Below are positions 6,188 to 62,830 of a stretch of 64,000 nucleotides of DNA, piece by piece. Source of the DNA: Tachypleus tridentatus (lineage: Eukaryota; Arthropoda; Merostomata; Xiphosura; Limulidae); assembly GCF_004210375.1 (NCBI RefSeq), contig NW_027467782.1, positions 32,911,771-32,975,770 on the forward strand. Direction: 5' to 3'. The first letter of the stretch is position 1, and each line of letters begins with the position of its first letter. The notes below the pieces were generated by a model, which was not told the origin of the DNA, did not search any database, and worked only from the letters and a program-made list of their open reading frames with translations. The position numbers and the translations under genes are program-made.

Positions 6188-6194
6188 ATCAATA

Positions 6195-23934: not shown

Positions 23935-26900
23935 TCTTTGTAACAAGTGTTACATTAACATGAGTCTCTTGTTCTTTGTAACAAGTGTTACATTAACATG
24001 AGGAGTCTCTTGTTCTTTGTAACAAGTGTTACATAAACATGAGTGTCTCTTGTTCTTTGAACTAGTGTTAGATTGATATGATTGTTTCTTGTTCTTTCCA
24101 ACAAGTGTTACATTATGATGAGTGTCTCTAGATCTTTGTAACAAGTGTTACATTAACATGAGTCTCTTGTACTTTTGTAACAAGTAACATGTTAATACAA
24201 CACTTGTTACAAAGAATTTATTTACTCATGTTAATGTAACACTTCTAAAGAACAAGAGAAGTCGTGTTAATAGAGCACTTGTAATAAAGAACAAGACATT
24301 CCTGTTAATGTAACACTTGTTACAAAAAACAAAAGACTCTCGTGTTAATCTAACACTTGTTACAAGAACAGAGAAACTCGTGTTATTGTAACACTTGTTA
24401 GAAAACAAAAGAAACAATGATGTTAATATAACACTTGTTTCAAAGAATAAGAGAACTCATGCTAATATAAAACTTGTTACAAAAGAAGAGACAATCATCT
24501 TTATGTTACACTTGTTACAAAGAACAAAGAGACTCATGTTAATGTAACACTTGTTACAAGAACAAGAAACAATCATGTTAATATATCACTTGATACAAAG
24601 AACAAGATACAATTATGTTAATGTAACACTTGTTACAAAACAAGAAACACTCACGTTATTATAACACTTGTTATAAAGAGAGAGAACTCGCGTTTTATGT
24701 AACACTAGTTACAAAACAAGAGAGACACCCATGTTTATGTAACACATTGACAAAGAACAAAAGACATGTTAATATAACACTTGTTACGAAAGAACAAAGA
24801 GACACTCGTGTTAATGTAACACTTTTACAAAAAGAACAAGAGAACTCATGTTAATGTAACACTTTTTACAAAGAACAAGAGAACTCATGTTAATGTAACA
24901 CTTTTATAAAGAGAACTATAAAACTCGTGTTAATGAAACACTTGTTAAAAGAACAAGAAACAATTATGTTAATATAACACTTGTTGTATTGACATCAGTG
25001 TCTCTTGTTCTTTGAAACTATGTTAGATTAACATGATTGTTTCTTGTTCTTTGTAACAAGTGTTACATTAACATGAATGTCTCTTGTTCTTAACTTTCTA
25101 ACAAGAATGTTATAATAACAAGATTTCTCTTGTTCTTTGAAACAAGATGTTAGATTAACATGACTGTTTTTTGTTCTTTGCAACAAATGTTACATTAAGA
25201 TGAATGTCTCTTGTTCTTTGTAACAAGTGTTATATTAAAACGATTTCTCTTGTTCTTTGCAATAAGTATTAACCTTATATTAGTGTCTCTTGTTCTTTGT
25301 AACAAGTGTAACATTACGAGTGTCTCCTACTTATTGTTTCCAGGTTTTCTATTATTAGGTTTTCTTGTTCTTTATAACAAGTTATTACATTAACACGAGT
25401 TCTTGTTCTTTGTAACAAATGTTATATTAACATGATTGTCTTGTTCTTATTGTTCCAAGTGTTACTATTAACATGAGTGTCTCTTAGTTCTTTGTAACAA
25501 GTGTTATATCAACATGAGTGTCTCTTTCTGTGTGTAAAGTGTTAAATTATAACGAGTGTGTCTTGTTCTTTGTAACAAGTCACATTAATACAGTGTCTCC
25601 TACTTATTGTTCCAAGTTTTTCTATTAATGAGTTTTCTTGTTCTTTTATAACAAGTATTACATTAACATGAGTTTGTACTGTAACAAGTAACATGTTAAA
25701 ACAACACTTGTTCAAAGACTACATTTCACTCATGTTAACACTTGCTACAAGAACAAGTCGATGTTAATAGAGCACTTGTAATAAGAACAAGACATTCAAT
25801 TATGTAACACTTGTTAAAACAAAGATACTCATGTTAATCTAACACTTGTTACAAGACAAAGAAGAAACTCATCTTAATGTAACACTTGTTGCAAGAACAA
25901 AACAGTCATGTTAATCTAACACTTGTTTCAAGAACAAGAGAAATCTTCTCTTGTTCTTTTGTAACAAATGTTATATTAACATGAGTTTTCTTGTTCTTTG
26001 TAACAAGTTGTTACATTAACATGAGTTCTCTTGTTCTTTGTAACAAGTGTTATATTAACATGATTGTCTTGTTCTTTGTAACAAGTGTTATATAACATGA
26101 GTGTCTCTTGTTCTTTGTAACAAATGTTATTTAACATGATTGTCTCTTGTTTTTTGTAGCAAGTGTTATATTAACACGACTTCTTGTTCTGTTGCAAACA
26201 AGTGTTACATTGATATGATTGTTTCTTGTTCTTTGTAATAAGTGTTACATTAACATGAGTGTCTAGTTCTTTGTAACAAGTTTTATATCAATACGAGTTC
26301 TCTTGTTCTTTGTAACAAGTGTTACATTAACATGAGTCTCTTGTTCATTGTAACAAGTGTTAGATAAACATGAGTGTCTCTTGTTCTTTGAACTAGTGTT
26401 AGATTGATATGATTGTTTCTTGTTCTTTGTAACAAGTGTTACATTAACATGAGTGTCTCTGATCTTTGTAACAAGTGTTACATTAACATGAGTCTCTTGT
26501 ACTTTTGTAACAAGTAACATGTTAATACAACACTTGTTATTAAAGAACACGACACTCATGTTAATGTAACACTGCTACAAAGAACAAGAGAATCGTGTTA
26601 ATAGAGCACTTGTAATAGAAAGAACAAGACATTCCTGTTAATGTAACACTTGTTACAAAAACAAAGATACTCGTGTTAATCTAACACTTGTTACAAAAAC
26701 AAGAGAAACTCGTGTTATTGTAACACTTGTTAGAAAAAACAAGAACAATGATGTTAATATAACACTTGTTTCAAAGAATAAGAGAACTCATGCTAATATA
26801 AAACTTGTTACAAAAGAAGAGACAATCATGTTCTTGTAACAAGGTTTATCTCATACACTTGTTACAAAGAACAAGAAACAATCATGTTAATATATCACTT

Positions 26901-29900
26901 GATACAAAGAACAAGATACAATTATGTTAATGTAACACTTGTTACAAAAACAAGAAACACTCACGTTATTATAACACTTGTTATAAAGAACAAGAGAACT
27001 CGCGTTTATGTAACACTAGTTACAAAAAACAAGAGACACCCATGTTTATGTAACTTGTGACAAAGAACAAGAGACATGTTAATATAACACTTGTTACGAA
27101 GAACAAGAGACACTCGTGTTAATGTAACACTTTTACAAGAACAAGAGAACTCATGTTAATGAAACACTTTTATAAAGAACTATAGAAACTCGTGTTAATG
27201 AAACACTTGTTAAAAGAACAAGAAACAATCATGTTAATATAACACTTGTTGTATTGACATCAGTCTCGTGTTCTTTGAAAATATGTTAGATTAACATGAT
27301 TGTTTCTTGTTCTTTGTAACAAGTGTTACATTATGAATGAATCTCTTGTTCTTTCTAACTAAGTGTTATAATAACAAGATTTCTCTTGTTCTTTGAAACA
27401 AGTGTTAGATTATGACTGTTTTTGTTCTTTGCAACAAGTGTTACATTAAGATGAATGTCTCTTGTTCTTTGTAACAAGTGTTATATTAAAACGATTTCTC
27501 TTGTTCTTTGCAATAAGTATTAACCTAATATTAGTGTCTCTTGTTCTTTGTAACAAGTGTAACATTAACATGAGTGTCTCTTTCTGTGTAAAAGTGTTAA
27601 ATTATAACGAGTGTGTCTTGTTCTTTGTAACAAGTCACATTAACACGAGTGTCTCCTACTTATTGTTCCAAGTTTTTCTATTAATGAGTTTTCTTGTTCT
27701 TTATAACAAGTATTACATTAACATCGAGTTCTCTTGTTCTTTGTAACAATTGTTATATTAACATGATTGTCTTGTTCTTTGTAACAAGTGTTACATTAAC
27801 ATGAGTCTCTTTCTTTTTGTAACAAGTGTTACATTAACATGAGTGTCTCTTGTTCTTTGTAACAAGTGTTACAAATTAACATGTCTCTTGTTCTTTGTAA
27901 CAAATGTTATTTAACATGATTGTCTCTTGTTTTTTGTAACAACTGTTATATTAACACTTCTTGTTACGTTGTAACAAGTGTTACATTGATATCATTGTTT
28001 CTTGTTCTTTGTAATAAGTGTTACATTAACATGAGTGTCTAGTTCTTTGTAAACAAGTGTTATATTAATATGAGTGTCTCTTGTTCTTTGTAACAAGTTG
28101 TTATATCAACATGAGTGTCTCTTGTTCTTTGTAACAAGTGTTAGATTGACATGATTTTCTTGTTCTTTGTAACAAGTGTTACATTAACATGATTGTCTCT
28201 TGTTCTTTGTAACAAGTGTTATATTAACACGAGTTCTCTTGTTCTTTGTAACAAGTGTTACATTAACATGAGTATTGTACTTTTAGTAACAAGTAACATG
28301 TTAATAACAACACTTGTTCAAAAGAACAAGACACTCATGTTAATTTAACACTTGTTACAAGAGAACAAAGACGTCATTAATAGAGCACTTGTTAATAAAG
28401 AACAAGACATTCCTGTTAATGTAACACTTACAAAGAAAGATACTCATGTTAATCTTTACTTGTTGACAAAGAACAAGAGAAACTCATGTTAATGTAACAC
28501 TTGTTACAAAGGACAAAAAACAGTCATGTTAATCTAAATACTTGTTTCAAAGAACAAGAGAGAATCTTGTTATTATAACACTTGTTACAAAGAACAAGGA
28601 CACTGATCAATATATAACAAGTGTTGTCTTTGTAACATTAATATGATAAGTGTGTCTCATGTTCTTTATAACAAGTGTTAGTCACATAAACACGAGTTCT
28701 CTTGTTCTTTGTAACAAGTGTTCTTTATAACAAGTATTAGTTTTCATGTTTCTTTGTAACAAGTGTTATATTAACATGAGTTGTCTTGTTCTTTGTAACA
28801 AGTGTTACATTAACATGAGTGTCTCTTGTTCTTTGTAACAAGTGTTATATTAACATGTCTCTTGTTCTTTGTAAAAGTGTTACATAAACATGAGTGTCTC
28901 TTGTTCTTTGTAACAAATGTTATTTAACATGATTGTCTCTTGTTTTTTTGTAAGCAACTGTTATATTAACACGACTTCTTGTTCGTTGTAACAAGTGTTA
29001 AATTGATATGATTGTTTCTTGTTCTTTGTAACAAGTGTTACATTAACATGAGTGTCTAGTTCTTTGTAAGAAGTTTTATATCAATACGAGTTCTCTTGTT
29101 CTTTGTAACAAGTGTTACGTTAACATGAGTCTCTTGTTCTTTGTAACAAGTGTTAGATAAACATGAGTGTCTCTTGTTCTTTGAACAGTGTTAGATTGAT
29201 ATGATTGTTTCTTTTGTTCTTTCCAACAAGTGTTACATTAACATGAGTGTCTCTAGATCTTTGTAACAAGTGTTACATTAACATGAGTCTCTTGTACTTT
29301 GTAACAAGTAACATGTTAATACAACACTTGTTACAAAAGAACACGACACTCATGTTAATGTAACACTACAAAGAACAAGAGAGACTCGTGTTAATAGAAC
29401 ACTTGTAATAAAGAACAAGACATTCTCTGTTAATGTAACAACAAAAAAAAAAGATACTCGTGTTAATCTAACACTTGTTACAAAGAACAAGAGAAACTCG
29501 TGTTATTGTAACACTTGTTGAAAAACAAGAAACAATGATGTTAATATAACACTTGTTTCAAGAATAAGAGAACTCATGCTAATATAAAACTTGTTACAAA
29601 AAAAGAAGAGACAATCATCTTTATGTTACACTTGTTACAAAGAACAAAGAGACTCATGTTAATGTAACACTTGTTACAAAGAACAAGAAACAATCATGTT
29701 AATATATCACTTGATACAAAGAACAAGATACAATTATGTTAATGTAACACTTGTTACAAAAAAACAAGAAACACTCACGTTATTATAACACTTGTTATAA
29801 AGAACAAGAGAACTCGCGTTTATGTAACACTAGTTACAAAAAACAAGAGACACCATGTTTATGTAACACTTGTTACAAAGAACAAAGACATCGTGTTAAT

Positions 29901-32900
29901 ATAACACTTTTACGAAGAACAAGAGACACTCGTGTTAATGTAACACTTTTACAAAGAACAAGAGAACTCATGTTAATGTAACACTTGTTAATGAAACACA
30001 AAGAACAAGAAACAATCATGTTACATATAATGATTGTTTCTTGTTAACACTTGTTACATTGACATATTGACATCAAGTGTCTCTTGTTCTTTGAAACAAG
30101 TGTTAGATTAACATGACTGTTCTTGTTCTTTGCAACAAGTGTTATATTAACATGATTTCTCTTGTTCTTTGTAAATAAATATTAACCTAATGTTGGTGTC
30201 TCTTGTTCTTTGTAACAAGTGTTACATTAACATGAGTGTCTCTTTTCTTTGTAAAAAGTGTTAAATTATAACAGTGTGTCTTGTTCTTTTTGTAACAAGT
30301 AACCTACGATTAGTGTTCTTGTACTTATTGTTCCAAGTCATTCCTACTTATTGTTCCAAGTTTTCTATTAATGAGTTCTCTTGTTCTTTGTAACAAATGT
30401 TATTTACTATGTAACATGAGAGTTCTCTTGTTCTTTGTAACAAGTGTTATATTAACATGAGTGTCTCTTGTTCTTTGTAACAAGTGTTACATTGATATGA
30501 GTGTTTCTTGTTCTTTGTAACAATTGTTACATTAACATGAGTGTCTAGTTCTTTGTAACAAGTGTTATATTAATACGAGTTCTCTTGTTCTTTGTAACAA
30601 GTGTTACATTAACATGAGTCTTGTACTTTGTAACAAGTAACATGTTAAAACAACACTTGTTCAAAAGAACACGACACTCATGTTAATGTAACACTTGTTA
30701 CAAAGAACAAGAGAAGTCGTGTTAATAGAACACTTGTAATAAAGAACAAGACATTAACATACTGTTAATGTAACACTTGTTACAAAGAACAAAAAAAAAC
30801 AGTCATGTTAATCTAACACTTGTTTCAAAGAACAAGAGAAATCTTGTTATTATAACACTTGTTACAAAAGAACAAGAGACACTGATGTCAATATAACAAG
30901 TGTTACATTAATATGAGTGTCTCATGTTTCTTTGTAACAAGTGTTACATTAATATGAGTGTCTCATGTTCTTTGTAACAATGTTACATAAACACGAGTTC
31001 TCTTGTTCTTTGTAACAAGTGTTCATTAACGTAAAGTGTTTCTTGTTCTTTGTAACAAGTGTAATATAAACACGAGTTCTCTTGTTCTTTGTAACAAGTG
31101 TTACATTAACATGAGTGTCTCTTGTTCTTTGTAACAAGTGTTATATTAACATGTCTCTTGTTCTTTGTAAAAGTGTTACATAAACATGAGTGTCTCTTGT
31201 TCTTTGTAACAAATGTTATTTAACATGATTGTCTCTTGTTTTTTGTAGCAACTGTTATATTATATTAACAGTGTTGAATTGATATGATTCTTGTTCTTTG
31301 TAACAAGTGTTAACATTGATATGATTGTTTCTTGTTCTTTGTAACAAGTGTTACATTAACATGAGTGTCTCTAGTTCTTTGTAACAAGTGTTTACATTAA
31401 CAATGATTGAGTTTTCTCTTGTTACTTTGTAACAAGTGTTACATTAACATGAGAGTCTCACTTGTTACAAAGAATACCACTTGTTACGACACTCAACATA
31501 ATGTAACACTTACTACAAAGAACAAGAGAAGTCGTGTTAATAGAGCACTTGTAATAAAGAACAAGACATTCCTGTTAATGTAACACTTGTTACAAAAAAA
31601 CAAAGATACTCGTGTTAATCTAACACTTGTTACAAGAACAAGAAAAGAAACTCGTGTTATTGTAACACTTGTTAGAAAAACAAAAACAATGATGTTAATA
31701 TAACACTTGTTTCAAAGAATAAGAGAACTCATGCTAATATAAAACTTGTTACAAAAGAAGAGACAATCATCTTTATGTTACACTTGTTACAAAGAACAAG
31801 AGACTCATGTTAATGTAACACTTGTTACAAAGAACAAGAAACAATCATGTTAATATATCACTTGATACAAAGAACAAGATACAATTATGTTAATGTAACA
31901 CTTGTTACAAAAACAAGAAACACTCACGTTATTATAACACTTGTTATAAAGAACAAGAGAACTCATGTTTATGTAACACTAGTTACAAAAAACAAGAGAC
32001 ACTCATGTTTATGTAACACATGTGACAAAGAACAAGAGACATGTTAATATAACACTTGTTACGAAGAACAAGAGACACTCTTTACAAAAGACAAAGAGTG
32101 TTAATGTAACACTTTTACAAAGAACAAGAGAACTCATGTTAATGAAACACTTTTTATAAAGAACTATAAAACTCGTGTTAATGAAACACTTGTTAAAAAA
32201 AGAACAAGAAACAATCATGTTAATATAACACTTGTTGTATTGACATCAGTGTCTCTTGTTCTTTGAAACATGTGTTAGATTAACATGATTGTTTCTTGTT
32301 CTTTGTAACAAGTGTTACATTAACATGAATGTCTCTTGTTCTTTCTAACAAGTGTTATAATAACAAGATTTCTCTTGTTCTTTGAAACAAGTGTTAGATT
32401 AACATGACTGTTTTTGTTCTTTGCAACAAGTGTTACATTAAGATGAATGTCTCTTGTTCTTTGTAACAAGTGTTATATTAAAACGATTTCTCTTGTTCTT
32501 TGCAATAAGTATTAACCTAATATTAGTGTCTCTTGTTCTTTGTAACAAGTGTAACATTAACATGAGTGTCTCTTGTTCTGTGTAAAAAGTGTTAAATATA
32601 ACGAGTGTGTCTTGTTCTTTGTAACAAGTTCACATTAACACGAGTGTCTCTTGTTCTTTTGTAACAAGTGTTACATTAACATGAGTTCTCTTGTTCTTTG
32701 TAACAAGTGTTATATTAACATGATTTCTCTTGTTCTTTGTAACAAGTGTTACATTAACATGAGTGTCTCTTGTTCTTTGTAACAAGTGTTACTTTAACAT
32801 GATTGTCTCTTGTTCTTTTGTAACAAGTGTTATATTAACATGACTTCTTGTTCGTTGTAACAAGTGTTACATTGATATGATTGTTTCTTGTTCTTTGTAA

Positions 32901-33376
32901 CAAGTGTTACATTAACATGAGTGTCTTGTTCTTTGTAACAAGTGTTATATAAATACGAGTTCTCTTGTTCTTTGTAACAAGTGTTACATTAACATGAGGA
33001 GTCTCTTGTTCATTTGTAACAAGTGTTATATTAACATGAGTGTCTCTTGTTCTTTGTAACAAGTGTTACATTGATATGATTGTTTCTTGTTCTTTGTAAC
33101 AAGTGTTACATTAACATGAGTGTCTTGTTCTTTGTAACAAGTGTTACATTCATGAGTCTCTTGTTCTTTGTAACAAGTGTTACATTAACATGAGAGTCTC
33201 TTGTTCTTTGTAACAAGTGTTAGATAAACATGAGTGTCTCTTGTTCTTTGAACAAGTGTTAGATTGATATGATTGTTTCTTGTTCTTTCCAACAAGTGTT
33301 ACATTAACATGAGTGTCTCTAGATCTTTGTAACAAGTGTTACATTAACATGAGTCTCTTGTACTTTGTAACAAGTA

Positions 33377-34140
33377 ACATGTTAATACAACACTTGTTAC
33401 AAAGAACACGACACTCATGTTAATCTTAACACTTGCTACAAAGAACAAGAGAAGTCGTGTTAATAGAGCACTTGTAATAAAGAACAAGACATTCCTGTTA
33501 ATGTAACACTTGTTACAAAAACAAAGATACTCGTGTTAATCTAACACTTGTTACAAAGAACAAGAGAAACTCATGTTATTGTAACACTTGTTAGAAAAAA
33601 CAAGAAACAATGATGTTAATATAACACTTGTTTCAAAGAATAAGAGAACTCATGCTAATATAAAACTTGTTACAAAAAAGACAATCATCTTTATGACTTG
33701 TTACAAAGATCAAAGACTCATTTATGTAACACTTGTTACAAAGAACAAGAAACAATCATGTTAATATATCACTTGTTACAAGAACAAGATACAATTATGT
33801 TAATGTAACACTTGTTACAAAAAACAAGAAACACTCACGTTATTATAACACTTGTTATAAAGAACAAGAGAACTCGCGTTTATGTAACACTAGTTACAAA
33901 ACAAGAGACACCCATGTTTATGTAACATTATGTGACAAAGAACAAGAGACATGTTAATATAACACTTGTTACGAAGAACAAGAGACACTCGTGTTAATGT
34001 AACACTTTTACAAAGAACAAGAGAACTCATGTTAATGAAACACTTTTTAAAAGAATAAGAGAACTCTAAAGAACTATGTTAATGAAACACTTGTTAAAAG
34101 AACAAGAAACAATCATGTTAATATAACACTTGTTGTATTG
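33377..34140 (-). repeat. Type T inverted block of the satellite (reference copy)
   Basis: Begins with junction variant TAATACAAC after ACATGT and ends at ATTGACATCAG, where the strand flips back. It is about 765 bp (near 19 monomers). Recognisable members in order include one with CTTGATACAAAG, one with AACTCGCGTTTATG (intact in most other copies), and one with TATAAAGAAC. Equivalent blocks run 24187-24991, 26517-27256, 37346-38111, 39057-39826, 41834-42562, 45977-46734, 47773-48550, 49571-50338, 53685-54458, 56173-56933 and 58714-59442. Those I compared are nearly identical except for one-base A-run differences, which implies recent homogenisation. Confidence 0.88.
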
Positions 34141-37100
34141 ACATCAGTGTCTCTTGTTCTTTGAAACATGTGTTAGATTAACATGATTGTTTCTTGTTCT
34201 TTGTAACAAGTGTTACATTAACATGAATGTCTCTTGTTCTTTCTAACAAGTGTTATAATAACAAGATTTCTCTTGTTCTTTGAAACAAGTGTTAGATTAA
34301 CATGACTGTTTTTGTTCTTTGCAACAAGTGTTACATTAAGATGAATGTCTCTTGTTCTTTGTAACAAGTGTTATATTAAAACGATTTCTCTTGTTCTTTG
34401 CAATAAGTATTAACCTAATATTAGTGTCTCTTGTTCTTTGTAACAAGTGTAACATTAACATGAGTGTCTCTTTTCTGTGTAAAAGTGTTAAATTATAACG
34501 AGTGTGTCTTGTTCTTTGTAACAAGTCACATTAACACGAGTGTCTCCTACTTATTGTTCCAAGTTTTCTATTAATGAGTTTTCTTGTTCTTTATAACAAG
34601 TATTACATTAACACGAGTTCTCTTGTTCTTTGTAACAAATGTTATATTAACATGATTGTCTTGTTCTTTGTAACAAGTGTTACATTAACATGAGTGTCTC
34701 TAGTTCTTTGTAACAAATGTTATTTAACATGATTGTCTCTTGTTTTTTGTAGCAACTGTTATATTAACACGACTTCTTGTTCGTTGTAACAAGTGTTACA
34801 TTGAAATGATTGTTTCTTGTTCTTTGTAACAAGTGTTACATTAACATAAATGTCTCTTGTTCTTTGTAACAAGTGTTATATTAACAAGATTTCTCTTGTT
34901 CTTTGTAACAAGTGTTAGATTAACATGACTTGTTTGTTTTTGTTCTTTGTAACAAGTGTTACATTAAGATGAATGTCTCTTGTTCTTTGTAACAAGTGTT
35001 ATATTAAAACGATTTCTCTTGTTCTTTGCAATAAGTATTAACCTAATATTAGTGTCTCTTGTTCTTTGTAACAAGTGTTAACATTAACATGAGTGTCTCT
35101 TTCTGTGTAAAAGTGTTAAATTATAACGAGTGTGTCTTGTTCTTTGTAACAACAAGTCACATTAACAAGTGTCTCCTACTTATTGTAACAAGTTTTCTAT
35201 TAATGAGTTTTCTTGTTCTTTATAACAAGTATTACATTAACATGAGTTCTCTTGTTCTTTGTAACAAATGTTATATTAACATGATTGTCTTGTTCTTTGT
35301 AACAAGTGTTACATTAACATGAGTGTCTCTTGTTCTTTGTAACAAGTGTTATTTAACATGATTGTCTCTTGTTTTTTGTAACAACTGTTATATTAACACG
35401 ACTTCTTGTTCTTTGTAACAAGTGTTACATTGATATGATTGTTTCTTGTTCTTTGTAACAAGTGTTACATTAACATGAGTGTCTAGTTCTTTGTAAGAAG
35501 TTTTATATCAATACGAGTTCTCTTGTTCTTTGTAACAAGTGTTACATTAACATGATGTCTCTTGTTCTTTGTAACAAGTGTTACATTAACATGAGTGTCT
35601 CTTGTTCTTTGTAACAAATGTTATTTTAACATGATTGTCTCTTGTTTTTTTGTAACAAGTGTTACATTAACATGAGACTTCTTGTTCTTTGTAACAAGTG
35701 TTACATTGATATAATTGTTTCTTGTTCTTTGTAACACTTGTTACATTAACATAAATGTCTCTTGTTCTTTGTAACAAGTGTTATAATAACAAGATTTCTC
35801 TTGTTCTTTGTAACACTTGTTAGATTAACATGACTGTTTTTGTTCTTTGTAACACTTGTTACATTAACATGAATACTCTTGTTCTTTGTAACAAGTGTTA
35901 TATTAAAAAGATTTCTCTTGTTCTTTGCAAGAAGTGTTAACATAATGTTAATGTCTCTTGTTCTTTGTAACAAGTGTTATATTAAAACGATTTCTCTTGT
36001 TTGTTACAATAAGTATTAACCTAATATTAGTGTCTCTTGTTCTTTGTAACAAGTGTTAACATTAACATGAGTGTCTCTTTCTGTGTAACAAGTGTTAAAG
36101 AACAACGAGTGTGTCTTGTTTAATGTAACAAGTTACATTAACAAGAGTGTCTCATGTTTATTGTAACAAGTTACAAATTAATGAGTTTTCTTGTTCTTTA
36201 TAACAACTTGTTACATTAACAGAGTTCTCTTGTTCTTTGTAACAATGTTATATTAACATGAGAACTCTTGTTCTTTGTAACAAGTGTTACATTAACATGA
36301 GTGTCTCTAGTTCTTTGTAACACTTTTTATTTAACATGATTGTCTCTTGTTTTTTGTAACAACTGTTATATTAACACGACTTCTTGTTCGTTGTAACAAG
36401 TGTTACATTGATATGATTGTTTCTTGTTCTTTGTAACAAGTGTTACATTAACATAAATGTCTCTTGTTCTTTCTAACAAGTGTTATAATAACAAGATTTC
36501 TCTTGTTCTTTGAAACAAGTGTTAGATTAACATGACTGTTTTTGTTCTTTGCAACAAGTGTTACATTAAGATGAATGTCTCTTGTTCTTTGTAACAAGTG
36601 TTATATTAAAACGATTTCTCTTGTTCTTTGCAATAAGTATTAACCTAATATTAGTGTCTCTTGTTCTTTGTAACAAGTGTAACATTAACATGAGTGTCTC
36701 TTTCTGTGTAAAAAGTGTTAAATTATAACGAGTGTGTCTTGTTCTTTGTAACAAGTCACATTAACACGAGTGTCTCCTACTTATTGTTCCAAGTTTTCTA
36801 TTAATGAGTTTTCTTGTTCTTTATAACAAGTATTACATTAACACGAGTTCTCTTGTTCTTTGTAACAAATGTTATATTAACATGATTGTCTTGTTCTTTG
36901 TAACAAGTGTTACATTAACATGAGTGTCTCTTGTTCTTTGTAACAAATGTTATTTAACATGATTGTCTCTTGTGTTTTTTGTAGCAACTGTTATATTAAC
37001 ACGACTTCTTGTTCGTTGTAACAAGTGTTACATTGATATGATTGTTTCTTGTTCTTTGTAACAAGTGTTACATTAACATGAGTGTCTCTAGTTCTTTGTA

Positions 37101-49100: not shown

Positions 49101-52100
49101 ACATGAGTGTCTCTTGTTCTTTGTAACAAATGTTATTTAACATGAGTTCTCTTGTTCTTTGTCTCTTGTGTCTCTTGTTCTTTGTTGTTATATTAACATG
49201 ATTGTCTTGTTTTTATTAACACGATTGTCTTTCTTTGTTGTTCTTTGTAACAAGTGTTACATTGATATGATTGTTTCTTGTTCTTTGTAATAAGTGTTAC
49301 ATTAACATGAGTGTCTAGTTCTTTGTAAGAAGTTTTATATCAATACGAGTTCTCTTGTTCTTTGTAACAAGTGTTAGATTAACATGAGTGTCTCTTGTTC
49401 TTTGTAACAAGTGTTAGATAAACATGAGTGTCTCTTGTTCTTTGAACAAGTGTTAGATTGATATGATTGTTTCTTGTTCTTTCCAACAAGTGTTACATTA
49501 ACATGAGTGTCTCTAGTTCTTTGTAACAAGTGTTACATTAACATGAGTCTCTTGTACTTTGTAACAAGTAACATGTTAATACAACACTTGTTACAAAGAA
49601 CACGACACTCATGTTAATGTAACACTTGCTACAAAGAACAAGAGAAGTCGTGTTAATAGAGCACTTGTAATAAAGAACAAGACATTCCTGTTAATGTAAC
49701 ACTTGTTACAAAAAAACAAAGATACTCGTGTTAATCTAACACTTGTTACAAAGAACAAGAGAAACTCGTGTTATTGTAACACTTGTTAGAAAAAACAAGA
49801 AACAATGATGTTAATATAACACTTGTTTCAAAGAATAAGAGAACTCATGCTAATATAAAACTTGTTACAAAAGAAGAGACAATCATCTTTATGTTACACT
49901 TGTTACAAAGAACAAGAGACTCATGTTAATGTAACACTTGTTACAAAGAACAAGAAACAATCATGTTAATATATCACTTGATACAAAGAACAAGATACAA
50001 TTATGTTAATGTAACACTTGTTACAAAAAAACAAGAAACACTCACGTTATTATAACACTTGTTATAAAGAACAAGAGAACTCGCGTTTATGTAACACTAG
50101 TTACAAAAACAAGAGACACCCATGTTTATGTAACACATGTGACAAAGAACAAGAGACATGTTAATATAACACTTGTTACGAAGAACAAGAGACACTCGTG
50201 TTAATGTAACACTTTTACAAAGAACAAGAGAACTCATGTTAATGAAACACTTTTATAAAGAACTATAAAACTCGTGTTAATGAAACACTTGTTAAAAGAA
50301 CAAGAAACAATCATGTTAATATAACACTTGTTGTATTGACATCAGTGTCTCTTGTTCTTTGAAACAAGTGTTTTGTTCTTTGTAACAAGTGTTACATTAA
50401 CATGAAACAAGTGTTAGATTAACATGATTGTTTCTTGTTCTTTGTAACAAGTGTTACATTAACATGAATGTCTCTTGTTCTTTGTAACAAGTGTTATATT
50501 AAAACGATTTCTCTTGTTCTTTGTAAATAAGTATTAACCTAATATTAGTGTCTCTTGTTCTTTGTAACAAGTGTGTAACATTAACATGAGTGTCTCTTGT
50601 TCTTGTAAAAGTGTTAAATTATAACGAGTGTGTCTTGTTCTTTGTAACAAGTGTCACATTAACACGAGTGTCTCCTACTTATTGTTCCAAGTTTTCTATA
50701 AATGAGTTTTCTTGTTCTTTGTAACAAGTGTTACATTAACATGAGTGTTCTTGTTCTTTGTAACAAGTGTAACAAGTGTTACATTAACATGAGTGTCTCT
50801 TGTTCTTTGTAACAAGTGTTATATAACATGTCTCTTGTTCTTTGTAACAAGTGTTACATTAACATGAGTGTCTCTTGTTCTTTGTAACAAATGTTATTTA
50901 ACATGATTGTCTTGTTCTTTGTAACAAGTGTTATATTAACATGACTTCTTGTTCTTTGTAACAAGTGTTAGATTAATATGATTTTCTTGTTCTTTGTAAC
51001 AAGTGTTACATTAACATGATTGTGTCTTGTTCTTTGTAACAAGTGTTATATTAACATGAGTTCTCTTGTTCTTTGTAACAAGTGTTACATTAACATGAGT
51101 TCTCTTGTAACTTTGTAACAAGTAACATGTTAAAACAACACTTGTTCAAAGAACACGACACTCATGTTAATTTAACACTTGCTACAAAGAACAAGAGAAG
51201 TCGTGTTAATAGAGCACTTGTAATAAAGAACAAGACATTCCTGTTAATGTAACACTTGTTACAAAAAACAAAGATACTCGTGTTAATCTAACACTTGTTA
51301 CAAAGAACAAGAGAAACTCATGTTATTGTAACACTTGTTAGAAAAACAAGAAACAATGATGTTAATATAACACTTGTTTCAAAGAATAAGAGAACTCATG
51401 TTAATATAAAACTTGTTACAAAGAACAAGAGACAATCATCTTTATGTAACACTTGTTAAACAAGAAACAAGAGATGTTAATATAACACTTGTTACAAAGA
51501 ACAAGACAATCATGTTAATATATCACTTGTTACAAAAAGACAAGATACACTTGTTACAAAGAACAAGAGACTCATGTTAATGTAACACTTGTTGTAACAC
51601 TTGTTACAAAGAACAAGATACAATTATGTTAATGTAACACTTGTTCACTCACGTTATTATAACACTTGTTATAAAGAACAAGAGAACTCGCGTTTATGTA
51701 ACACTAGTTACAAAAAACAAGAGACACCCATGTTTATGTAACACATGTGACAAAGAACAAGAGACATGTTAATATAACACTTGTTACGAAGAACAAGAGA
51801 CACTCGTGTTAATGTAACACTTTTACAAAGAACAAGAGAACTCATGTTAATGAAACACTTTTATAAAGAACTATAAAACTCGTGTTAATGAAACACTTGT
51901 TAAAAAAGAACAAGAAACAATCATGTTAATATAACACTTGTTGTATTGACATCAGTGTCTCTTGTTCTTTGAAACATGTGTTAGATTAACATGATTGTCT
52001 TGTTCTTGTTCTTTGTAACAAGTGTTACATTAACATGAATGTCTCTTGTTCTTTCTAACAAGTGTTATAATAACAAGATTTCTCTTGTTCTTTGAAACAA

Positions 52101-55100
52101 GTGTTAGATTAACATGACTTTTTGTTCTTTGCAACAAGTGTTACATTAAGATGAATGTCTCTTGTTCTTTGTAACAAGTGTTATATTAAAACGATTTCTC
52201 TTGTTCTTTGCAATAAGTATTAACCTAATATTAGTGTCTCTTGTTCTTTGTAACAAGTGTAACATTAACATGAGTGTCTCTTTCTGTGTAAAAAGTGTTA
52301 ATTATAACGAGTGTGTCTTGTTCTTTGTAACAAGTCACATTAACACGAGTGTCTCCTACTTATTGTAACAAGTTTTCTATTAAATGAGTTTTCTTGTTCT
52401 TTATAACAAGTATTACATTAACACGAGTTCTCTTGTTCTTTGTAACAAATGTTATATTAACATGATTGTCTTGTTCTTTGTAACAAGTGTTACATTAACA
52501 TGAGTGTCTCTTGTTCTTTGTAACAAGTGTTATATTAACACGAGTTCTCTTGTTCTTTGTAACAAGTGTTACATTAACATGAGTGAGTGTTCTTTGTAAC
52601 ACTTGTTACATTAATTAACAACACGTGTCTTTGTAACAGTGTCTCTTGTTCTTTGTAACACTTGTTACAAACAAGACACTCATGTTATATTTTGTAACTT
52701 GTTACAAAGAACAAGAGAAACATGTTAATAGAACACTTGTTAATAAAGAACAAGACATCATGTTAATGTAACACTTGTTACAAAGAACAAAGAAGTCGTG
52801 TTAATATAACACTTGTTACAAAGAACAAGACATCATGTTAATGTAACACTTGTTACAAAGAACAAGAGACACTCATGTTAATGTAACACTTGTTACAAAG
52901 AACAAGAAACAGTCATGTTTTTATAACACTTGTTACAAAGAACAAGAGTGAAATCATGTTAATTCTTGTTGTAACAAGTGTTACATTAACATGAGTGTCT
53001 CTTGTTCTTTGTAACAAGTGTTACATTAACATGAGTGTCTCATGTTCTTTGTAACAAGTGTTACATAAACATGAGTGTCTCTTGTTCTTTGTAACAAGTG
53101 TTACATTAACATAAGTTCTCTTGTTCTTTGTAACAAGTGTTACATTAACATGAGTTCTCTTGTTCTTTGTAACAAGTGTTACATTAACATGAGTGTCTCT
53201 TGTTCTTTGTAACAAGTGTTATATTAACATGTCTCTTGTTCTTTGTAAAAAGTGTTACATAAACATGAGTGTCTCTTGTTCTTTGTAACAAATGTTATTT
53301 AACATGATTGTCTCTTGTTTTTTGTAACAACTGTTATATTAACACGACTTCTTGTTCGTTGTAACAAGTGTTACATTGATATGATTGTTTCTTGTTCTTT
53401 GTAACAAGTGTTACATTAACATGAGTGTCTAGTTCTTTGTAACAAGTTTTATATCAATACGAGTTCTCTTGTTCTTTGTAACAAGTGTTACGTTAACATG
53501 AGAGTCTCTTGTTCATTGTAACAAGTGTTAGATAAACATGAGTGTCTCTTGTTCTTTGAACAAGTGTTAGATTGATATGATTGTTTCTTGTTCTTTCCAA
53601 CAAGTGTTACATTAACATGAGTGTCTCTAGATCTTTGTAACAAGTGTTACATTAACATGAGTCTCTTGTACTTTGTAACAAGTAACATGTTAATACAACA
53701 CTTGTTACAAAGAACACGACACTCATGTTAATGTAACACTTGCTACAAAGAACAAGAGAAGTCGTGTTAATAGAGCACTTGTAATAAAGAACAAGACATT
53801 CCTGTTAATGTAACACTTGTTAAAAAAACAAAGATACTCGTGTTAATCTAACACTTGTTACAAAGAACAAGAGAAACTCGTGTTATTGTAACACTTGTTA
53901 GAAAAAAAAACAAGAAACAATGATGTTAATATAACACTTGTTTCAAAGAATAAGAGAACTCATGCTAATATAAAACTTGTTACAAAAAAGAAGAGACAAT
54001 CATCTTTATGTTACACTTGTTACAAAGAACAAGAGACTCATGTTAATGTAACACTTGTTACAAAGAACAAGAAACAATCATGTTAATATATCACTTGATA
54101 CAAAGAACAAGATACAATTATGTTAATGTAACACTTGTTACAAAAAACAAGAAACACTCACGTTATTATAACACTTGTTATAAAGAACAAGAGAACTCGC
54201 GTTTATGTAACACTAGTTACAAAAAAAACAAGAGACACCCATGTTTATGTAACACATGTGACAAAGAACAAGAGACATGTTAATATAACACTTGTTACGA
54301 AGAACAAGAGACACTCGTGTTAATGTAACACTTTTACAAAGAACAAGAGAACTCATGTTAATGAAACACTTTTATAAAGAACTATAAAACTCGTGTTAAT
54401 GAAACACTTTGTTAAAAGAACAAGAAACAATCATGTTAATATAACACTTGTTGTATTGACATCAGTGTCTCTTGTTCTTTGAAACATGTGTTAGATTAAC
54501 ATGATTGTTTCTTGTTCTTTGTAACAAGTGTTACATTAACATGAATGTCTCTTGTTCTTTCTAACAAGTGTATAATAACAAGATTTCTCTTGTTCTTTAA
54601 CAAGTGTTAGATTAACATGACTGTTTTCTTGTTCTTTGCAACAAGTGTTACATTATGAATGTCTCTTGTTCTTTAACAAGTGTTATATTAAAACGATTTT
54701 CTTGTTCTTTGCAACAAGTGTTACATTAAGATGAATGTCTCTTGTTCTTTGTAACAAGTGTTATATTAAAACGATTTCTCTTGTTCTTTGCAATAAGTAT
54801 TAACCTAATATTAGTGTCTCTTGTTCTTTGTAACAAGTCACATTAACATGAGTGTCTCTACTTATTGTTCCAAGTTTTCTATTAATGAGTTTTCTTGTTC
54901 TTTGTAACAAGTATTACATTAACACGAGTTCTCTTGTTCTTTGTAAGTTGTTATATTAACATGATTGTCTTGTTCTTTGTAACAAGTGTTACATTAACAT
55001 GAGTGTCTCTTGTTCTTTGTAACAAGTGTTATATTAACATGAGTGTCTCTTGTTCTTTGTTGTAACAATATGTTCTTGTTATGTAACAATTGTTACATTA

Positions 55101-57703
55101 ACATGAGTGTCTTGTTCTTTGTAACAAGTGTTACATTAACATGAGTTCTCTTGTTCTTTGTAACAAGTGTTACATTAACATGAGTCTTGTACTTTGTAAC
55201 AAGTAACATGTTAAAACAACACTTGTTCAAAAGAACACGACACTCATGTTAATTTAACACTTGCTACAAAGAACAAGAGAAGTCGTGTTAATAGAGCACT
55301 TGTAATAAAGAACAAGTAACATTCCTGTTAATGTAACACTTGTTACTTGTTAAAAAAACAAAGATACTCATGTTAATCTAACACTTGTTACAAAGAACAA
55401 GAGAAACTCATCTTAATGTAACACTTGTTGCAAGAAACAAAAACAGTCATGTTAATCTAATACTTGTTTCAAAGAAAGAACAAGAGAGAAATCTTGTTAT
55501 TATAACACTGTTAAAGAACAAGAGACACTGATGTCAATATAACAAGTGTTACATTAACATGAGTGTCTCATGTTCTTTGTAACAAGTGTTACAATAAACA
55601 CGAGTTCTCTTGTTCTTTGTAACAAGTGTTCATTAACATAAGTGTTTCATGTTCTTTGTAACAAGTGTTATATAAACATGAGTTCTCTTGTTCTTTGTAA
55701 CAAGTGTTACATTAACATGAGTGTCTCTTGTTCTTTGTAACAAGTGTTATATTAACATGTCTCTTGTTCTTTGTAAAAGTGTTACATAAACATGAGTGTC
55801 TCTTGTTCTTTGTAACAAGTGTTATTTAACATGTTGTCTCTTGTTTTTTGTAGCAACTGTTATATTAACACGACTTCTTGTTCTTTGTAACAAGTGTTAC
55901 ATTGATATGATTGTTTCTTGTTCTTTGTAATAAGTGTTACATTAACATGAGAGTCTCTTGTTCTTTGTAACAAGTTTTATATCAATATGAGTTCTCTTGT
56001 TCTTTGTAACAAGTGTTACATTAACATGAGAGTCTCTTGTTCTTTGTAACAAGTGTTAGATAAACATGAGTGTCTCTTGTTCTTTGAACAAGTGTTACAT
56101 TAACATGATTGTTTCTTGTTCTTTGTAACAAGTGTTACATTAACATGAGTCTCTTGTACTTTGTAACAAGTAACATGTTAATACAACACTTGTTACAAAG
56201 AACACGACACTCATGTTAATGTAACACTTGCTACAAAGAACAAGAGAAGTCGTGTTAATAGAGCACTTGTAATAAAGAACAAGACATTCCTGTTAATGTA
56301 ACACTTGTTACAAAAAAACAAAGATACTCGTGTTAATCTAACACTTGTTACAAAGAACAAGAGAAACTCGTGTTATTGTAACACTTGTTAGAAAAAACAA
56401 GAAACAATGATGTTAATATAACACTTGTTTCAAAGAATAAGAGAACTCATGCTAATATAAAACTTGTTACAAAAAGAAGAGACAATCATCTTTATGTTAC
56501 ACTTGTTACAAAGAACAAGAGACTCATGTTAATGTAACACTTGTTAAAGAACAAGAAACAATCATGTTAATATATCACTTGATACAAAGAACAAGATACA
56601 ATTATGTTAATGTAACACTTGTTACAAAAAACAAGAAACACTCACGTTATTATAACACTTGTTATAAAGAACAAGAGAACTCATGTTAATGTAACACTAG
56701 TTAAAAAAACAAGAGACACCCATGTTTATGTAACACAGACAAAGAACAAGAGACATGTTAATATAACACTTGTTACAAAGAACAAGAGACACTCATGTTA
56801 ATGTAACACTTTTATAAAGAACAATAGAACTCATGTTAATGAAACACTTTTATAAAGAACTATAAAACTTGTTAATGAAACACTTGTTAAAAGAACAAGA
56901 AACAATCATGTTAATATAACACTTGTTGTATTGACATCAGTGTCTCTTGTTCTTTGAAACATGTGTTAGATTAACATGATTGTTTCTTGTTCTTTGTAAC
57001 AAGTGTTACATTAACATGAATGTCTCTTGTTCTTTCTAACAAGTGTTATAATAACAAGATTTCTCTTGTTCTTTGAAACAAGTGTTAGATTAACATGACT
57101 GTTTTTTTGTTCTTTGCAACAAGTGTTACATTAAGATGAATGTCTCTTGTTCTTTGTAACAAGTGTTATATTAAAACGATTTCTCTTGTTCTTTGCAATA
57201 AGTATTAACCTAATATTAGTGTCTCTTGTTCTTTGTAACAAGTGTAACATTAACATGAGTGTCTCTTTCTGTGTAAAAGTGTTAAATTATAACGAGTGTG
57301 TCTTGTTCTTTGTAACAAGTCACATTAACACGAGTGTCTCCTGCTTATTGTTCCAAGTTTTCTATTAATGAGTTTTCTTGTTCTTTATAACAAGTATTAC
57401 ATTAACACGAGTTCTCTTGTTCTTTGTAACAAATGTTATATTAACATGATTGTCTTGTTCTTTGTAACAAGTGTTACATTAACATGAGTGTCTCTTGTTC
57501 TTTGTAACAAGTGTTATATCAACATGAGTGTCTCTTGTTCTTTGTAACAAGTGTTACATTGATATGATTTTCTTGTTCTTTGTAACAAGTGTTACATTAA
57601 CATGAGTGTCTAGTTCTTTGTAACAAGTGTTATATTAATACGAGTTCTCTTGTTCTTGTAACAAGTGTTACATTAACATGAGTCTTGTACTTTGTAACAA
57701 GTA

Positions 57704-57987
57704 ACATGTTAAAACAACACTTGTTCTTTTAAAAACACGACACTCATGTTAATTTAACACTTGCTACAAAGAACAAGAGAAGTCGTGTTAATAGAGCACT
57801 TGTAATAAAGAACAAGACATTCCTGTTAATGTAACACTTGTTACAAAAAAAGAACAAAAAACAGTCATGTTAATCTAACACTTGTTTGTTATTGTAAACA
57901 AAAACAAGAAATCTTGTTATTATAACACTTGTTACAAAGAACAAGAACAATATAACACTTGTTACAAGAACAAGAGACACTGATGTC
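57704..57987 (-). repeat. Type A inverted block of the satellite (reference copy)
   Basis: The junction variant is TAAAACAAC followed by ACTTGTTC. The block is only about 280 bp and ends in GATGTCAATATAACAAGTG, where the strand flips back. Other members start at 25691, 30640, 43571, 51125 and 55206; 28296 is intermediate, and the one at 51125 runs on into T-like sequence. In the right part of the array T and A blocks alternate (53685 T, 55206 A, 56173 T, 57704 A, 58714 T), giving a composite period near 2.5 kb. Elsewhere T follows T at about 1.8 kb. Confidence 0.8.
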
Positions 57988-60135
57988 AATATAACAAGTG
58001 TTACATTAATAACATGAGTGTCTCATGTTCTTTGTAACAAGTGTTACATTAACATGAGTGTCTCATGTTCATGTTCTTTAACAAGTGTTACATAAACACG
58101 AGTTCTCTTGTTCTTTGTAACAAGTGCTTCATTAACGTAAGTGTTTCATGTTCTTTGTAACAAGTGTAATATAAACACGAGTTCTCTTGTTCTTTGTAAC
58201 AAGTATTACAGTAACATGAGTGTCTCTTGCTCTTTGTAACAAGTGTTATATTAACATGTCTCTTGTTCTTTGTAAAAGTGTTACATAAACATGTGTCTCT
58301 TGTTCTTTGTAACAAATGTTATTTAACATGATTGTCTCTTGTTTTTTGTAGCAACTGTTATATTAACACGACTTCTTGTTCGTTGTAACAAGTGTTACAT
58401 TGATATGATTGTTTCTTGTTCTTTGTAATAAGTGTTATATTAACATGAGTGTCTCTAGTTCTTTGTAAGAAGTTTTATATCAATACGAGTTCTCTTGTTC
58501 TTTGTAACAAGTGTTACGTTAACATGAGAGTCTCTTGTACATTGTAACAAGTGTTAGATAAACATGAGTGTCTCTTGTTCTTTGTAACAAGTGTTAGATT
58601 TATATGATTGTTTCTTGTTCTTTCCAACAAGTGTTACATTAACATGAGTGTCTCTAGATCTTTGTAACAAGTGTTACATTAACATGAGCGTCTCTTGTAC
58701 TTTGTAACAAGTAACATGTTAATACAACACTTGTTACAAAGAACACGACACTCATGTTAATGTAACACTTGCTACAAAGAACAAGAGAAGTCGTGTTAAT
58801 AGAGAACTTGTAATAAAGAACAAGACATTCCTGTTAATGTGACACTTGTTACAAAAAACAAAGATACTCGTGTTAATCTAACACTTGTTACAAAGAACAA
58901 GAGAAACTCGTGTTATTGTAACACTTGTTAGAAAAAAACAAGAAACAATTATTGTTAATATAACACTTGTTTCAAAGAATAAGAGAACTCATGCTAATAT
59001 AAAACTTGTTACAAAAAGAAGAGACAATCATCTTTATGTTACACTTGTTACAAAGAACAACAAACAATCATGTTATTATATCACTTGATACAAAGAACAA
59101 GATACAATTATGTTAATGTAACACTTGTTACAAAAAACAAGAAACACTCACGTTATTATAACACTTGTTATAAAGAACAAGAGAACTCGCGTTTAAGTAA
59201 CACTAGTTACAAAAAAAAGAGACACCCATGTTTATGTAACACGTGACAAAGAACAAGAGACATGTTAATATAACACTTGTTACAAAGAACAAGAGAACTC
59301 ATGTTAATGAAACACTTTTATAAAGAACAATAGAACTCATGTTAATGAAACACTTTTATAAAGAACAATAGAACTCGTGTTAATGAAACACTTGTTAAAA
59401 AGAACAAGAAACAATCATGTTAATATAACACTTGTTGTATTGACATCAGTGTCTCTTGTTCTTTGAAACATGTGTTTGATTAACATGATTGATTAACATG
59501 ATTGTTTCTTGTTCTTTGTAACAAGTGTTACATTAACATGAATGTCTCTTGTTCTTTCTAACAAGTGTTATAATAACAAGATTTCTCTTCTTCTTTGAAA
59601 CAAGTGTTAGATTAACATGACTGTTTTTTGTTCTTTGCAACAAGTGTTACATTAAGATGAATGTCTCTTGTTCTTTGTAACAAGTGTTATATTAAAACGA
59701 TTTTTCTTGTTCTTTGCAATAAGTATTAACCTAATATTAGTGTCTCTTGTTCTTTGTAACAAGTGTAACATTAACATGAGTGTCTCTTTCTGTGTAAAAA
59801 GTGTTAAATTATAACGAGTGTGTCTTGTTCTTTGTAACAAGTGTCACATTAACACGAGTGTCTCCTGCTTATTGTTCCAAGTTTTATATTAATGAGTTTT
59901 CTTGTTCTTTGTAACAAATGTTATATTAACATGAGTGTCTCTAGTTCTTTGTAACACGTGTTATATCAACATGAGTGTCTCTTGTTCTTTGTAACAAGTG
60001 TTAGATTGATATGATTGTCTTGTTCTTTGTAACAATTGTTACATTAACATGAATGTCTAGTTCTTTGTAACAAGTGTTATATTAATACGAGTTCTCTTGT
60101 TCTTTGTAACAAGTGTTACATTAACATGAGTCTTG

Positions 60136-62781: not shown

Positions 62782-62830
62782 AATAAGGTGTAAGGCTCTT
62801 AGGTCTGCTTGGTCCCCAGACTTCAGAATC

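What the first reader, a model, noticed from the sequence alone, without database searches (positions are those of the whole stretch)
23935..60134. A 36-kb satellite whose 40-bp monomers flip strand in a regular pattern
Most tandem satellites keep one orientation for long distances. Here blocks of plus-oriented monomers (several hundred bases) alternate with blocks of minus-oriented monomers throughout, with at least 21 clean plus-to-minus junctions. The locus is effectively a chain of large inverted repeats that could form long hairpins in RNA or cruciforms in DNA. Such a structure could be a small-RNA source, a fragile site or a chromosome-structural element. The function is inference; the alternation is seen directly.
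Basis: seen in the sequence. Interest (0 to 1): 0.8.

Follow-up and report, generated by a model that had tools for sequence, protein, structure and literature searches.

The report
Palindromic repeat satellite in horseshoe crab
In a horseshoe-crab genome, a satellite made of 40-letter repeats flips direction at regular intervals because its real repeating unit is a near-palindrome of about 1.8 kb that was copied as a whole, and such arrays sit in duplicated DNA at many places on one chromosome.

Summary
The alternation is real. I re-segmented window 23935-60131 into 47 single-strand blocks with 23 plus-to-minus switches. These are not separate inversions: 21 of 23 share one junction sequence, and the 16 long minus blocks (mean 757 bp, CV 4.4%) are 79-99% identical to each other. 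The true unit is a higher-order repeat (about 1.8 kb, with a 2.5-kb derivative) holding a plus and a minus segment; 20 of 20 units tested align to their own reverse complement nearly full length, at about 77%. A sister array repeats it very regularly (23 minus blocks, CV 2.5%). The junction occurs 609 times genome-wide (up to 3 mismatches; reversed-pattern control 0).

Both array edges recur (13 and 17 places, mostly contig C19), and flanks read at three sites are 97-99.5% identical: arrays travel in segmental duplications. The genome is a horseshoe crab's (Coagulin family). The kilobase around one junction folds in silico as one long hairpin, but mirror register pairs no better than a one-monomer shift, so selection for exact arms is not supported. 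Closest known: palindromic Tribolium satellites. I judge it a new, longer-armed, dispersed variant; function undemonstrated.

The parts
23435..23934 (.). 500-N assembly gap hiding the left end of the array; it cuts the ATR-like exon to its left
   Evidence: in the next copy of that exon the sequence runs on into other, non-satellite DNA (L051)
23935..60131 (.). satellite array of about 960 40-bp monomers (partial ones counted) in alternating orientation; consensus ATTAACATGAGTGTCTCTTGTTCTTTGTAACAAGTGTTAC
   Evidence: right edge fixed by comparison with two other arrays
48547..50334 (.). example of one 1.8-kb palindromic higher-order unit: plus 48547-49570, minus 49571-50334
49561..49593 (+). 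plus-to-minus junction J1, GTAACAAGTA|ACATGTTAATACAACACTTGTTA, here after 49570; its core GTAACAAGTA|ACATGTTAA is in 21 of 23 switches
   Evidence: 609 matches genome-wide with at most 3 mismatches, reversed-pattern control 0
50319..50354 (+). minus-to-plus junction J2 of long minus blocks, ATATAACACTTGTTGT|ATTGACATCAGTGTCTCTTG; 14 of 16 long minus blocks end at it or a close variant
   Evidence: extended 82-base pattern 255 matches with at most 1 mismatch, control 0
24187..24986 (-). long minus block
25691..25942 (-). short minus block
26517..27255 (-). long minus block
28296..28605 (-). short minus block
29311..30050 (-). long minus block (its minus-to-plus end departs from J2)
30640..30888 (-). 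short minus block
31457..32238 (-). long minus block (its plus-to-minus junction departs from J1)
33377..34136 (-). long minus block
34137..37345 (+). 3.2-kb plus stretch with only two 16-bp minus remnants (break in the rhythm)
37346..38107 (-). long minus block
39057..39822 (-). long minus block
39823..41833 (+). 2.0-kb plus stretch with only a 33-bp minus remnant (break in the rhythm)
41834..42558 (-). long minus block
43571..43925 (-). short minus block
44576..45243 (-). long minus block (diverged; its minus-to-plus end departs from J2)
45977..46730 (-). long minus block
47773..48546 (-). long minus block
49571..50334 (-). long minus block
51125..51944 (-). long minus block
52656..52965 (-). 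short minus block (its plus-to-minus junction departs from J1)
53685..54454 (-). long minus block
55206..55532 (-). short minus block; part of it matches one end of a long minus block at nearly constant offset, 92-93%
56173..56929 (-). long minus block
57704..57985 (-). short minus block
58714..59438 (-). long minus block
60118..60159 (+). fixed right edge of the array, ACATTAACATGAGT|CTTGATTCATCAAGAGGCCC...; array ends at 60131
   Evidence: 13 matches genome-wide, 12 on C19 and 1 on C14, control 0; read in context at 3 of the 13
60132..64000 (.). flank F, duplicated next to other arrays
   Evidence: 97.99% identical to the C14 flank over 8784 aligned bases (window continued into L050) and 99.06% to the C19:1.02-Mb flank over 6986
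1..11310 (.). second copy of F, next to the neighbouring upstream array: position 1 matches 62782
   Evidence: 96.81% identity over 11387 aligned bases; end of the upstream array and the join to F seen in L053

Best explanation
This is a palindromic higher-order-repeat satellite. Shown: the repeating unit is not the 40-bp monomer but a block of about 1.8 kb (with a derived form of about 2.5 kb) that contains one plus run (about 1 kb) and one minus run (about 0.76-0.80 kb), joined at two recurrent junctions. Shown: both kinds of array edge recur as fixed sequences, and where I read the flank behind the right edge (three sites, plus the second copy in the window) it is 97-99.5% identical; most copies are on one 69.8-Mb contig (C19). 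Inferred: a monomer array suffered an inversion or fold-back template switch, plausibly at the short palindromes the monomer provides (J1 contains the perfect 8-bp palindrome AACATGTT); the unit holding both orientations was then multiplied by unequal exchange or replication-based amplification; later, arrays were copied with their flanks as large segmental duplications. Inferred: the array needs no function to exist. Its long-hairpin potential may promote replication stalling and rearrangement, and so its own amplification, but that step is not shown.
For: Same J1 core in 21 of 23 switches, 609 copies of J1 genome-wide, control 0; J2-centred 82-mer 255 copies, control 0. The 16 long minus blocks are 79-99% identical as whole blocks, although single blocks are only 79-92% identical to the monomer consensus. 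Minus-block length CV 4.4% here and 2.5% in the C19:0.45-Mb array; lowest of 200,000 random simulations 29%. 4 of 4 other arrays read show the alternation. In 21 units of the C19:0.45-Mb array mean pairwise identity is 93.4%. 20 of 20 units tested (19 from that array, 1 from the window) align to their own reverse complement, mean aligned length 1816 at 77.0%. Edges: right 13 copies, left 17 copies, controls 0. Flank identity 97-99.5%; tandem neighbour about 62.8 kb upstream.
Against: Plus-run length is irregular in the window (CV 60%). Two of 23 plus-to-minus switches (31456, 52655) lack the J1 core, 2 of 16 long minus blocks (ending 30050 and 45243) do not end at J2, and short minus blocks end at other sequences, so some switches may be later events. 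Unit identity is high only in the regular array: pieces of 1.6-2.05 kb cut at fuzzy J2 matches (up to 7 edits, which also hit false places) averaged 93.4% in C19:0.45 Mb, 86.1% in C14, 79.9% in C4 and only 74.6% among the 4 pieces from the window. Edge-anchored comparison of arrays is only partly collinear (window versus C14 per 500 bp: 98, 92, 94, 98, 80, 83, 90...; a one-unit-shift control on the pair window versus C19:1.02 Mb scores as high as the unshifted pair), so joint duplication is clear from the flanks, not from the arrays. The sequence behind the gap at the C19:0.5-Mb array and that before the gap at C4 is not F. The left edge was read in context at 1 of 17 places. The arms show no memory of a common inverted parent (83-86% at changing offsets, like other registers), so the founding inversion is inferred, not seen.
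Confidence: 0.8

Rival explanations
1. A foldback- or Helitron-like mobile element: the array, or array plus flank, is a transposon that carries inverted tandem repeats, and its copies are transposition events.
For: Two edges recurring at 13 and 17 places, on C14 and C19 (right edge) and C4, C6, C8 and C19 (left edge). Some right and left edges lie only about 9.3 and 13.5 kb apart (C19:36666327-36675651 and 35828895-35842438, positions; the DNA between was not read).
Against: Homology continues at least 13.9 kb beyond the right edge into ordinary repeat-rich DNA. A neighbouring array joins the same flank 0.77 kb further in, so the edge is not an obligatory terminus. Copies are concentrated on one contig, and one pair is in tandem. 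Transposase and target-site duplications were not tested.
Confidence: 0.11
2. A selected structural element: the alternation is kept because long hairpins, or double-stranded RNA from them, serve chromosome structure (centromere-like), small-RNA production or silencing. This concerns function and could be true together with the best explanation of origin.
For: Strong predicted single hairpin around one junction (z -31); longest exact stem within 300 bp median 27 bp at 95 junctions against 6 bp at 60 plus-only control positions; very regular unit in the C19:0.45-Mb array; a parallel proposal for Tribolium (PMC13081366).
Against: Mirror register is no better paired than a one-monomer shift; rhythm lost over 3.2 kb and 2.0 kb in the window; arrays and edges are dispersed along C19 (0.46 to 68.9 Mb) and on other contigs rather than at one site per chromosome. 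No expression or chromatin data.
Confidence: 0.12
3. Assembly artefact: strand switches are read-join or fold-back read errors.
For: 4 of the 5 arrays read touch a 500-N gap, so these regions are hard to assemble.
Against: The same junction sequences hundreds of times, with listed places on three contigs, recurrent edges, arms only about 77% identical, and a gap-free stretch holding 23 minus blocks.
Confidence: 0.03
4. Many independent inversions inside an ordinary one-direction satellite.
For: Two plus-to-minus switches without the J1 core, two long blocks without J2, and the separate short-block class.
Against: 21 of 23 switches at the same base with the same core sequence; long-block length CV 4.4%.
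Confidence: 0.03

Closest known systems
Tribolium madens TmSat1/TmSat2 satellites with macro-dyad symmetries (PMC13081366; seen: abstract, passages, section 7 part 1 of 2, Discussion part 1 of 2)
   Same: Satellite whose monomers change orientation, with highly conserved inversion sites, a near-palindromic repeat unit (TmSat2: 704 bp with about 300-bp imperfect inverted repeats) and predicted long hairpins.
   Different: Here the monomer is 40 bp, the palindromic unit 1.8-2.5 kb, and switches mostly recur every 0.3-1 kb; in T. madens arrays predominantly have two subarrays, several kb long. Here arrays are dispersed in duplicated DNA, mainly on one contig, rather than filling putative pericentromeres of all chromosomes.
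[quoted passage not shown]
   Same: A tandem unit that is itself a long inverted repeat.
   Different: Here each arm is about 0.8-0.9 kb and is made of about 20 tandem 40-bp monomers, at about 77% arm identity; relation in sequence was not tested.
Human alpha-satellite higher-order repeats (PMC9859433; passages seen)
   Same: Higher-order units of diverged monomers.
   Different: Inversions within those units are described there as few, with orientation typically maintained; here inversion is part of the unit.
Foldback (FB) transposons of Drosophila (recalled, no call)
   Same: Long inverted repeats built from short tandem repeats.
   Different: The array is many units long, and one neighbouring array joins the flank at a different base; target-site duplications were not tested.

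Membership tests
Satellite DNA with higher-order repeats | long head-to-tail arrays of a diverged monomer | tested here: met
   961 monomers (counting partial ones; 846 with at most 4 gaps) in 36.2 kb, block identity to the consensus 79-92%
Satellite DNA with higher-order repeats | multi-monomer units far more alike than other registers of the same block | tested here: met
   long minus blocks up to 99% identical to each other (lowest pair 79%); one pair tested in pieces 98-100% at offsets within 3 bp, against 81-85% between registers of one block. Within the window whole 1.8-kb pieces average only 74.6% (4 pieces)
Macro-dyad (palindromic) satellites, Tribolium type | orientation change inside the array at conserved inversion sites | tested here: met
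   J1 core in 21 of 23, J2 in 14 of 16; genome-wide counts
Macro-dyad (palindromic) satellites, Tribolium type | unit that is itself an imperfect inverted repeat | tested here: met
   20 of 20 units, 77.0% over mean 1816 aligned bp
Macro-dyad (palindromic) satellites, Tribolium type | (peri)centromeric location on all chromosomes | tested here: inconclusive
   the 100 listed places of each junction search are only on C4, C14 and C19, dispersed along C19, but both lists are capped; edges also on C6 and C8; centromere positions unknown
Macro-dyad (palindromic) satellites, Tribolium type | common ancestry with Tribolium satellites | not tested
   no Tribolium sequence at hand; the likeness is in architecture only
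Foldback / Helitron-like transposon | fixed termini | tested here: inconclusive
   edges recur 13 and 17 times, but a neighbouring array joins the flank elsewhere
Foldback / Helitron-like transposon | target-site duplication or empty sites, transposase | not tested
Centromere | CENP-A binding | not testable with these tools
   needs ChIP or CUT&RUN

The most novel reading that the evidence does not exclude
C19 is an ampliconic chromosome (sex-linked or selfish) that has multiplied fragments of the checkpoint kinase gene ATR together with palindromic satellite arrays; the arrays act as hairpin-forming fragile or recombination sites that drive the amplification, so that a palindromic satellite and a DNA-damage/meiotic-silencing gene have spread as one package.
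Probability: 0.1. Interest if true: 0.85.

Novelty: new variant of a known kind. Interest (0 to 1): 0.5.

Why it matters
In the one paper on the subject that I read, satellites with palindromic units are described mainly for Tribolium beetles and are argued to matter for centromeres. A longer-armed case in a chelicerate, made of a 40-bp monomer and lying in segmental duplications, would show that the architecture arises in distant animals and without one block per chromosome. That would weaken the step from macro-dyad symmetry to centromere function, and it offers a natural series of arrays of different regularity and length in which hairpin-driven instability can be measured. It also marks C19 of this horseshoe crab as an unusually amplified chromosome.

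Tried and rejected
Arms as an exact folded-back copy: rejected; in one unit, rc(minus) pieces match the plus arm at 83-86% with changing offsets, like other registers within an arm (75-88% plus, 81-85% minus), and mirror register is not special. Array inside an ATR intron: not supported; the N gap cuts the exon, and in the next copy that exon continues into other DNA, 97.4% identical to a C4 copy over 2.6 kb (L051, L052). Whole-genome DNA search with the 80-bp dimer found nothing; that search skips very common words, and pattern searches replaced it. Further ATR exons in the window: no family or structure search was run on the other open frames listed; I only looked at them by eye against recalled sequence, which is not a test. 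Exact horseshoe-crab species: not determined. Literature, listings only unless said otherwise: a search for alternating or inverted satellite arrays gave 1 unrelated paper; foldback, inverted-orientation and tandem-array terms gave 0; head-to-head/tail-to-tail terms gave 7, 6 listed, none on such a satellite by title; horseshoe crab + satellite DNA gave 6, none on a horseshoe-crab satellite by title; horseshoe crab + sex chromosome gave 26, 10 listed, used only to look for context. Two similarity printouts were cut for length; I used the parts shown and a concise rerun.
Full report
WHERE THIS IS. The window is contig C19 (69.8 Mb), 32911771-32975770, of a 2.17-Gb assembly in 205 contigs. The genome holds the horseshoe-crab clotting family Coagulin (PF02035): 19 matches, best E 1.5e-25, against 0 of 14 control genomes. 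That Coagulin is confined to horseshoe crabs is recalled. I did not determine the species.

OBSERVATION. A Viterbi segmentation on 8-mers of the 40-bp consensus gave 57 segments; after merging small interruptions by hand I worked with 47 blocks. 47 of 47 fit the called strand far better than the other (1.01-1.67 against 0.08-0.51 per bp). There are 23 plus-to-minus switches. The plus and minus monomers have the same majority consensus. Minus blocks fall into two classes: 16 of 668-820 bp and 7 of 249-355 bp. The long class has a length CV of 4.4%, while 200,000 simulations of random switching never fell below 29%. The rhythm is broken twice, by plus stretches of 3.2 and 2.0 kb, and plus-run length has a CV of 60% (22 of 24 plus blocks).

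THE SWITCH IS PART OF A LARGER UNIT. In 21 of 23 plus-to-minus switches the sequence is GTAACAAGTA|ACATGTTAA; 14 of 16 long minus blocks end at ...AACACTTGTTGT|ATTGACATCAGT or a close variant. The 16 long minus blocks are 79-99% identical to each other over their whole length; the first 600 bp of plus after them are 75-99% and the last 500 bp before them 77-98% identical between units. In one pair tested in pieces, identity is 98-100% at offsets within 3 bp, against 81-85% to other registers of the same block. So monomer order is inherited: this is a higher-order repeat of about 1.8 kb, with a form of about 2.5 kb that has an extra short minus block. The one short block tested matches one end of a long block at 92-93% over part of its length.

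IT IS A FAMILY. The J1 pattern (33 bases, at most 3 mismatches) occurs 609 times (310 forward, 299 reverse), reversed-pattern control 0. An 82-base pattern over J2 (at most 1 mismatch) occurs 255 times, control 0. Both listings stop at 100 places; those lie on C4, C14 and C19 only, so contigs after C19 are not excluded. Four other arrays read all alternate. The one at C19:450011-500856 is the most regular: 9.4 kb of plus, then 23 minus blocks (mean 790 bp, CV 2.5%) alternating with plus runs (22 runs, the two end runs left out: mean 1015 bp, CV 6.1%). Its 21 comparable units average 93.4% identity (adjacent 94.2%, non-adjacent 93.3%). Elsewhere unit identity is lower: 86.1% within C14 (11 pieces), 79.9% within C4 (3), 74.6% within the window (4), and 78-91% between arrays. 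These pieces were cut at fuzzy J2 matches of up to 7 edits, which also hit false places, so the low values mix divergence with wrong cuts.

PALINDROME. 20 of 20 units tested (19 from the C19:0.45-Mb array, 1 from the window) align to their own reverse complement, mean 1816 aligned bases at 77.0%, so each arm is about 0.8-0.9 kb. Near 95 junctions in the five arrays the longest exact stem within 300 bp has a median of 27 bp (maximum 45), against 6 (maximum 7) at 60 random plus-only positions. The 1000 nt around position 49570 fold, as single-stranded DNA, into essentially one hairpin of -307 kcal/mol (20 shuffles: mean -116, sd 6, z -31); an all-plus kilobase gives -121 (its shuffles: mean -84, z -5.9). 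Shorter 140-nt folds agree: -46.4 at J1 (z -12.0) and -33.2 at J2 (z -6.9), against -8.2 to -14.7 (z -0.5 to -2.5) at three non-junction sites. Against a selected exact hairpin: mirror-register identity in 40-bp bins 2-8 is 77-83%, after a one-monomer shift 77-81%, after two 77-80%. The pairing is about what any two opposed runs of this monomer would give.

EDGES AND AMPLICON. The right edge...ACATTAACATGAGT|CTTGATTCATCAAGAGGCCC, occurs 13 times (12 on C19, 1 on C14), control 0; I read it in context at three. The flank behind it is 99.06% identical between the window and C19:1.02 Mb (6986 aligned bases), 99.51% between C14 and C19:1.02 Mb (6976), and 97.99% between C14 and the window (8784). 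The opposite edge was read at one place, on C4, where the array meets a 34-bp minisatellite without a gap; that sequence occurs 17 times (13 on C19, 2 on C4, 1 each on C6 and C8), control 0. Flank sequence beyond the gaps at C4 and at the C19:0.45-Mb array is not F. The window itself holds two copies of the flank: 1-11310 matches the right flank from 62782 on, 96.81% over 11387 aligned bases. Just upstream of the window another array ends at about C19:32909891 and joins the same flank 0.77 kb further in. So array plus flank recurs in tandem with a period of about 62.8 kb. Copies in the two orientations also lie close to each other (for example C19:12.56-12.70 Mb). Arrays themselves are only partly collinear from the edge inwards, and a shifted control does as well on one pair, so they have turned over since, or are too repetitive to tell.

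ATR. Left of the gap lies a truncated exon whose translation matches PDB chains named ATR (E 7e-9, species not shown) and, below its curated cut-off, the FAT domain (19 against 24.2 bits). The 375-bp segment holding it has 26 copies at 95-100% identity, the window's own included: 22 on C19, 3 on C4, 1 on C3. The UME domain has 18 exon matches: 14 on C19, 2 on C4, 1 each on C3 and C9; none of the 14 control genomes matched (that UME marks ATR is recalled). Whether UME and FAT copies belong to the same gene copies was not tested. A segment at 15400-16000 has 40 scored copies at 95-100%, 37 on C19, out of 2312 candidates at first look, so this is a lower bound. The array is not shown to lie in an ATR intron.

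MECHANISM. Shown: recurrent junctions, palindromic unit, recurrent edges, nearly identical flanks where read. Inferred: a founding inversion or fold-back, block amplification, then segmental duplication. The order is an inference from divergence: flanks about 0.5-3%, units of the regular array about 7%, arms about 23%.

COMPARISON. Closest are the macro-dyad satellites of Tribolium (PMC13081366, read in part), where conserved inversion sites and palindromic units are described. That paper names a 1061-bp T. brevicornis unit with about 470-bp inverted segments as the most prominent intra-monomeric case reported to date; the arms here are nearly twice as long, though only about 77% alike and built of small monomers. 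I found no paper on this horseshoe-crab satellite in the searches (listings only; the library holds open-licence papers only). The mangrove horseshoe-crab genome paper (PMC7210998, passages seen) has no occurrence of 'satellite' in its main text.

VERDICT. Real, more ordered than reported, and explained by a palindromic higher-order repeat in duplicated DNA. A new variant of a known kind; function not shown.

Noticed in passing
window 23267-23434 (minus strand): Truncated ATR-kinase exon at the gap; its segment has 26 near-identical copies (22 on C19), and the UME domain has 18 exon matches (14 on C19): ATR sequence looks strongly amplified on this chromosome.
   Followed up: partly
window 15400-16000: At least 40 copies at 95-100% identity, 37 on C19, spread over about 7.5-38.7 Mb in the 40 best: C19 seems to carry a large amplicon family. 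Whether C19 is a sex chromosome was not tested.
   Followed up: partly
window 5157-6178: A minisatellite of 32-, 52- and 84-bp periods inside the flank, which leaves an open frame on the minus strand (5827-6216).
   Followed up: no
L040 from 7029 on; L045 from 7761 on and L046 (C4:21003029, C14:8967761): A 34-bp minisatellite (about ACTGCTTACCCCCGTTGCTAGGGACATTTCCCC) borders the other side of the C4 array directly and follows the gap at the C14 array; 12 kb of it on C14.
   Followed up: partly
C19:12.56-12.70 Mb: Arrays in opposite directions lie side by side (right-edge matches at 12563074 -, 12632873 +, 12670633 -), suggesting very large inverted duplications.
   Followed up: no
window 60132-60145: The first bases of the flank after the array, CTTGATTCATCAAG, form a perfect 6+2+6 inverted repeat; meaning unknown.
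   Followed up: no
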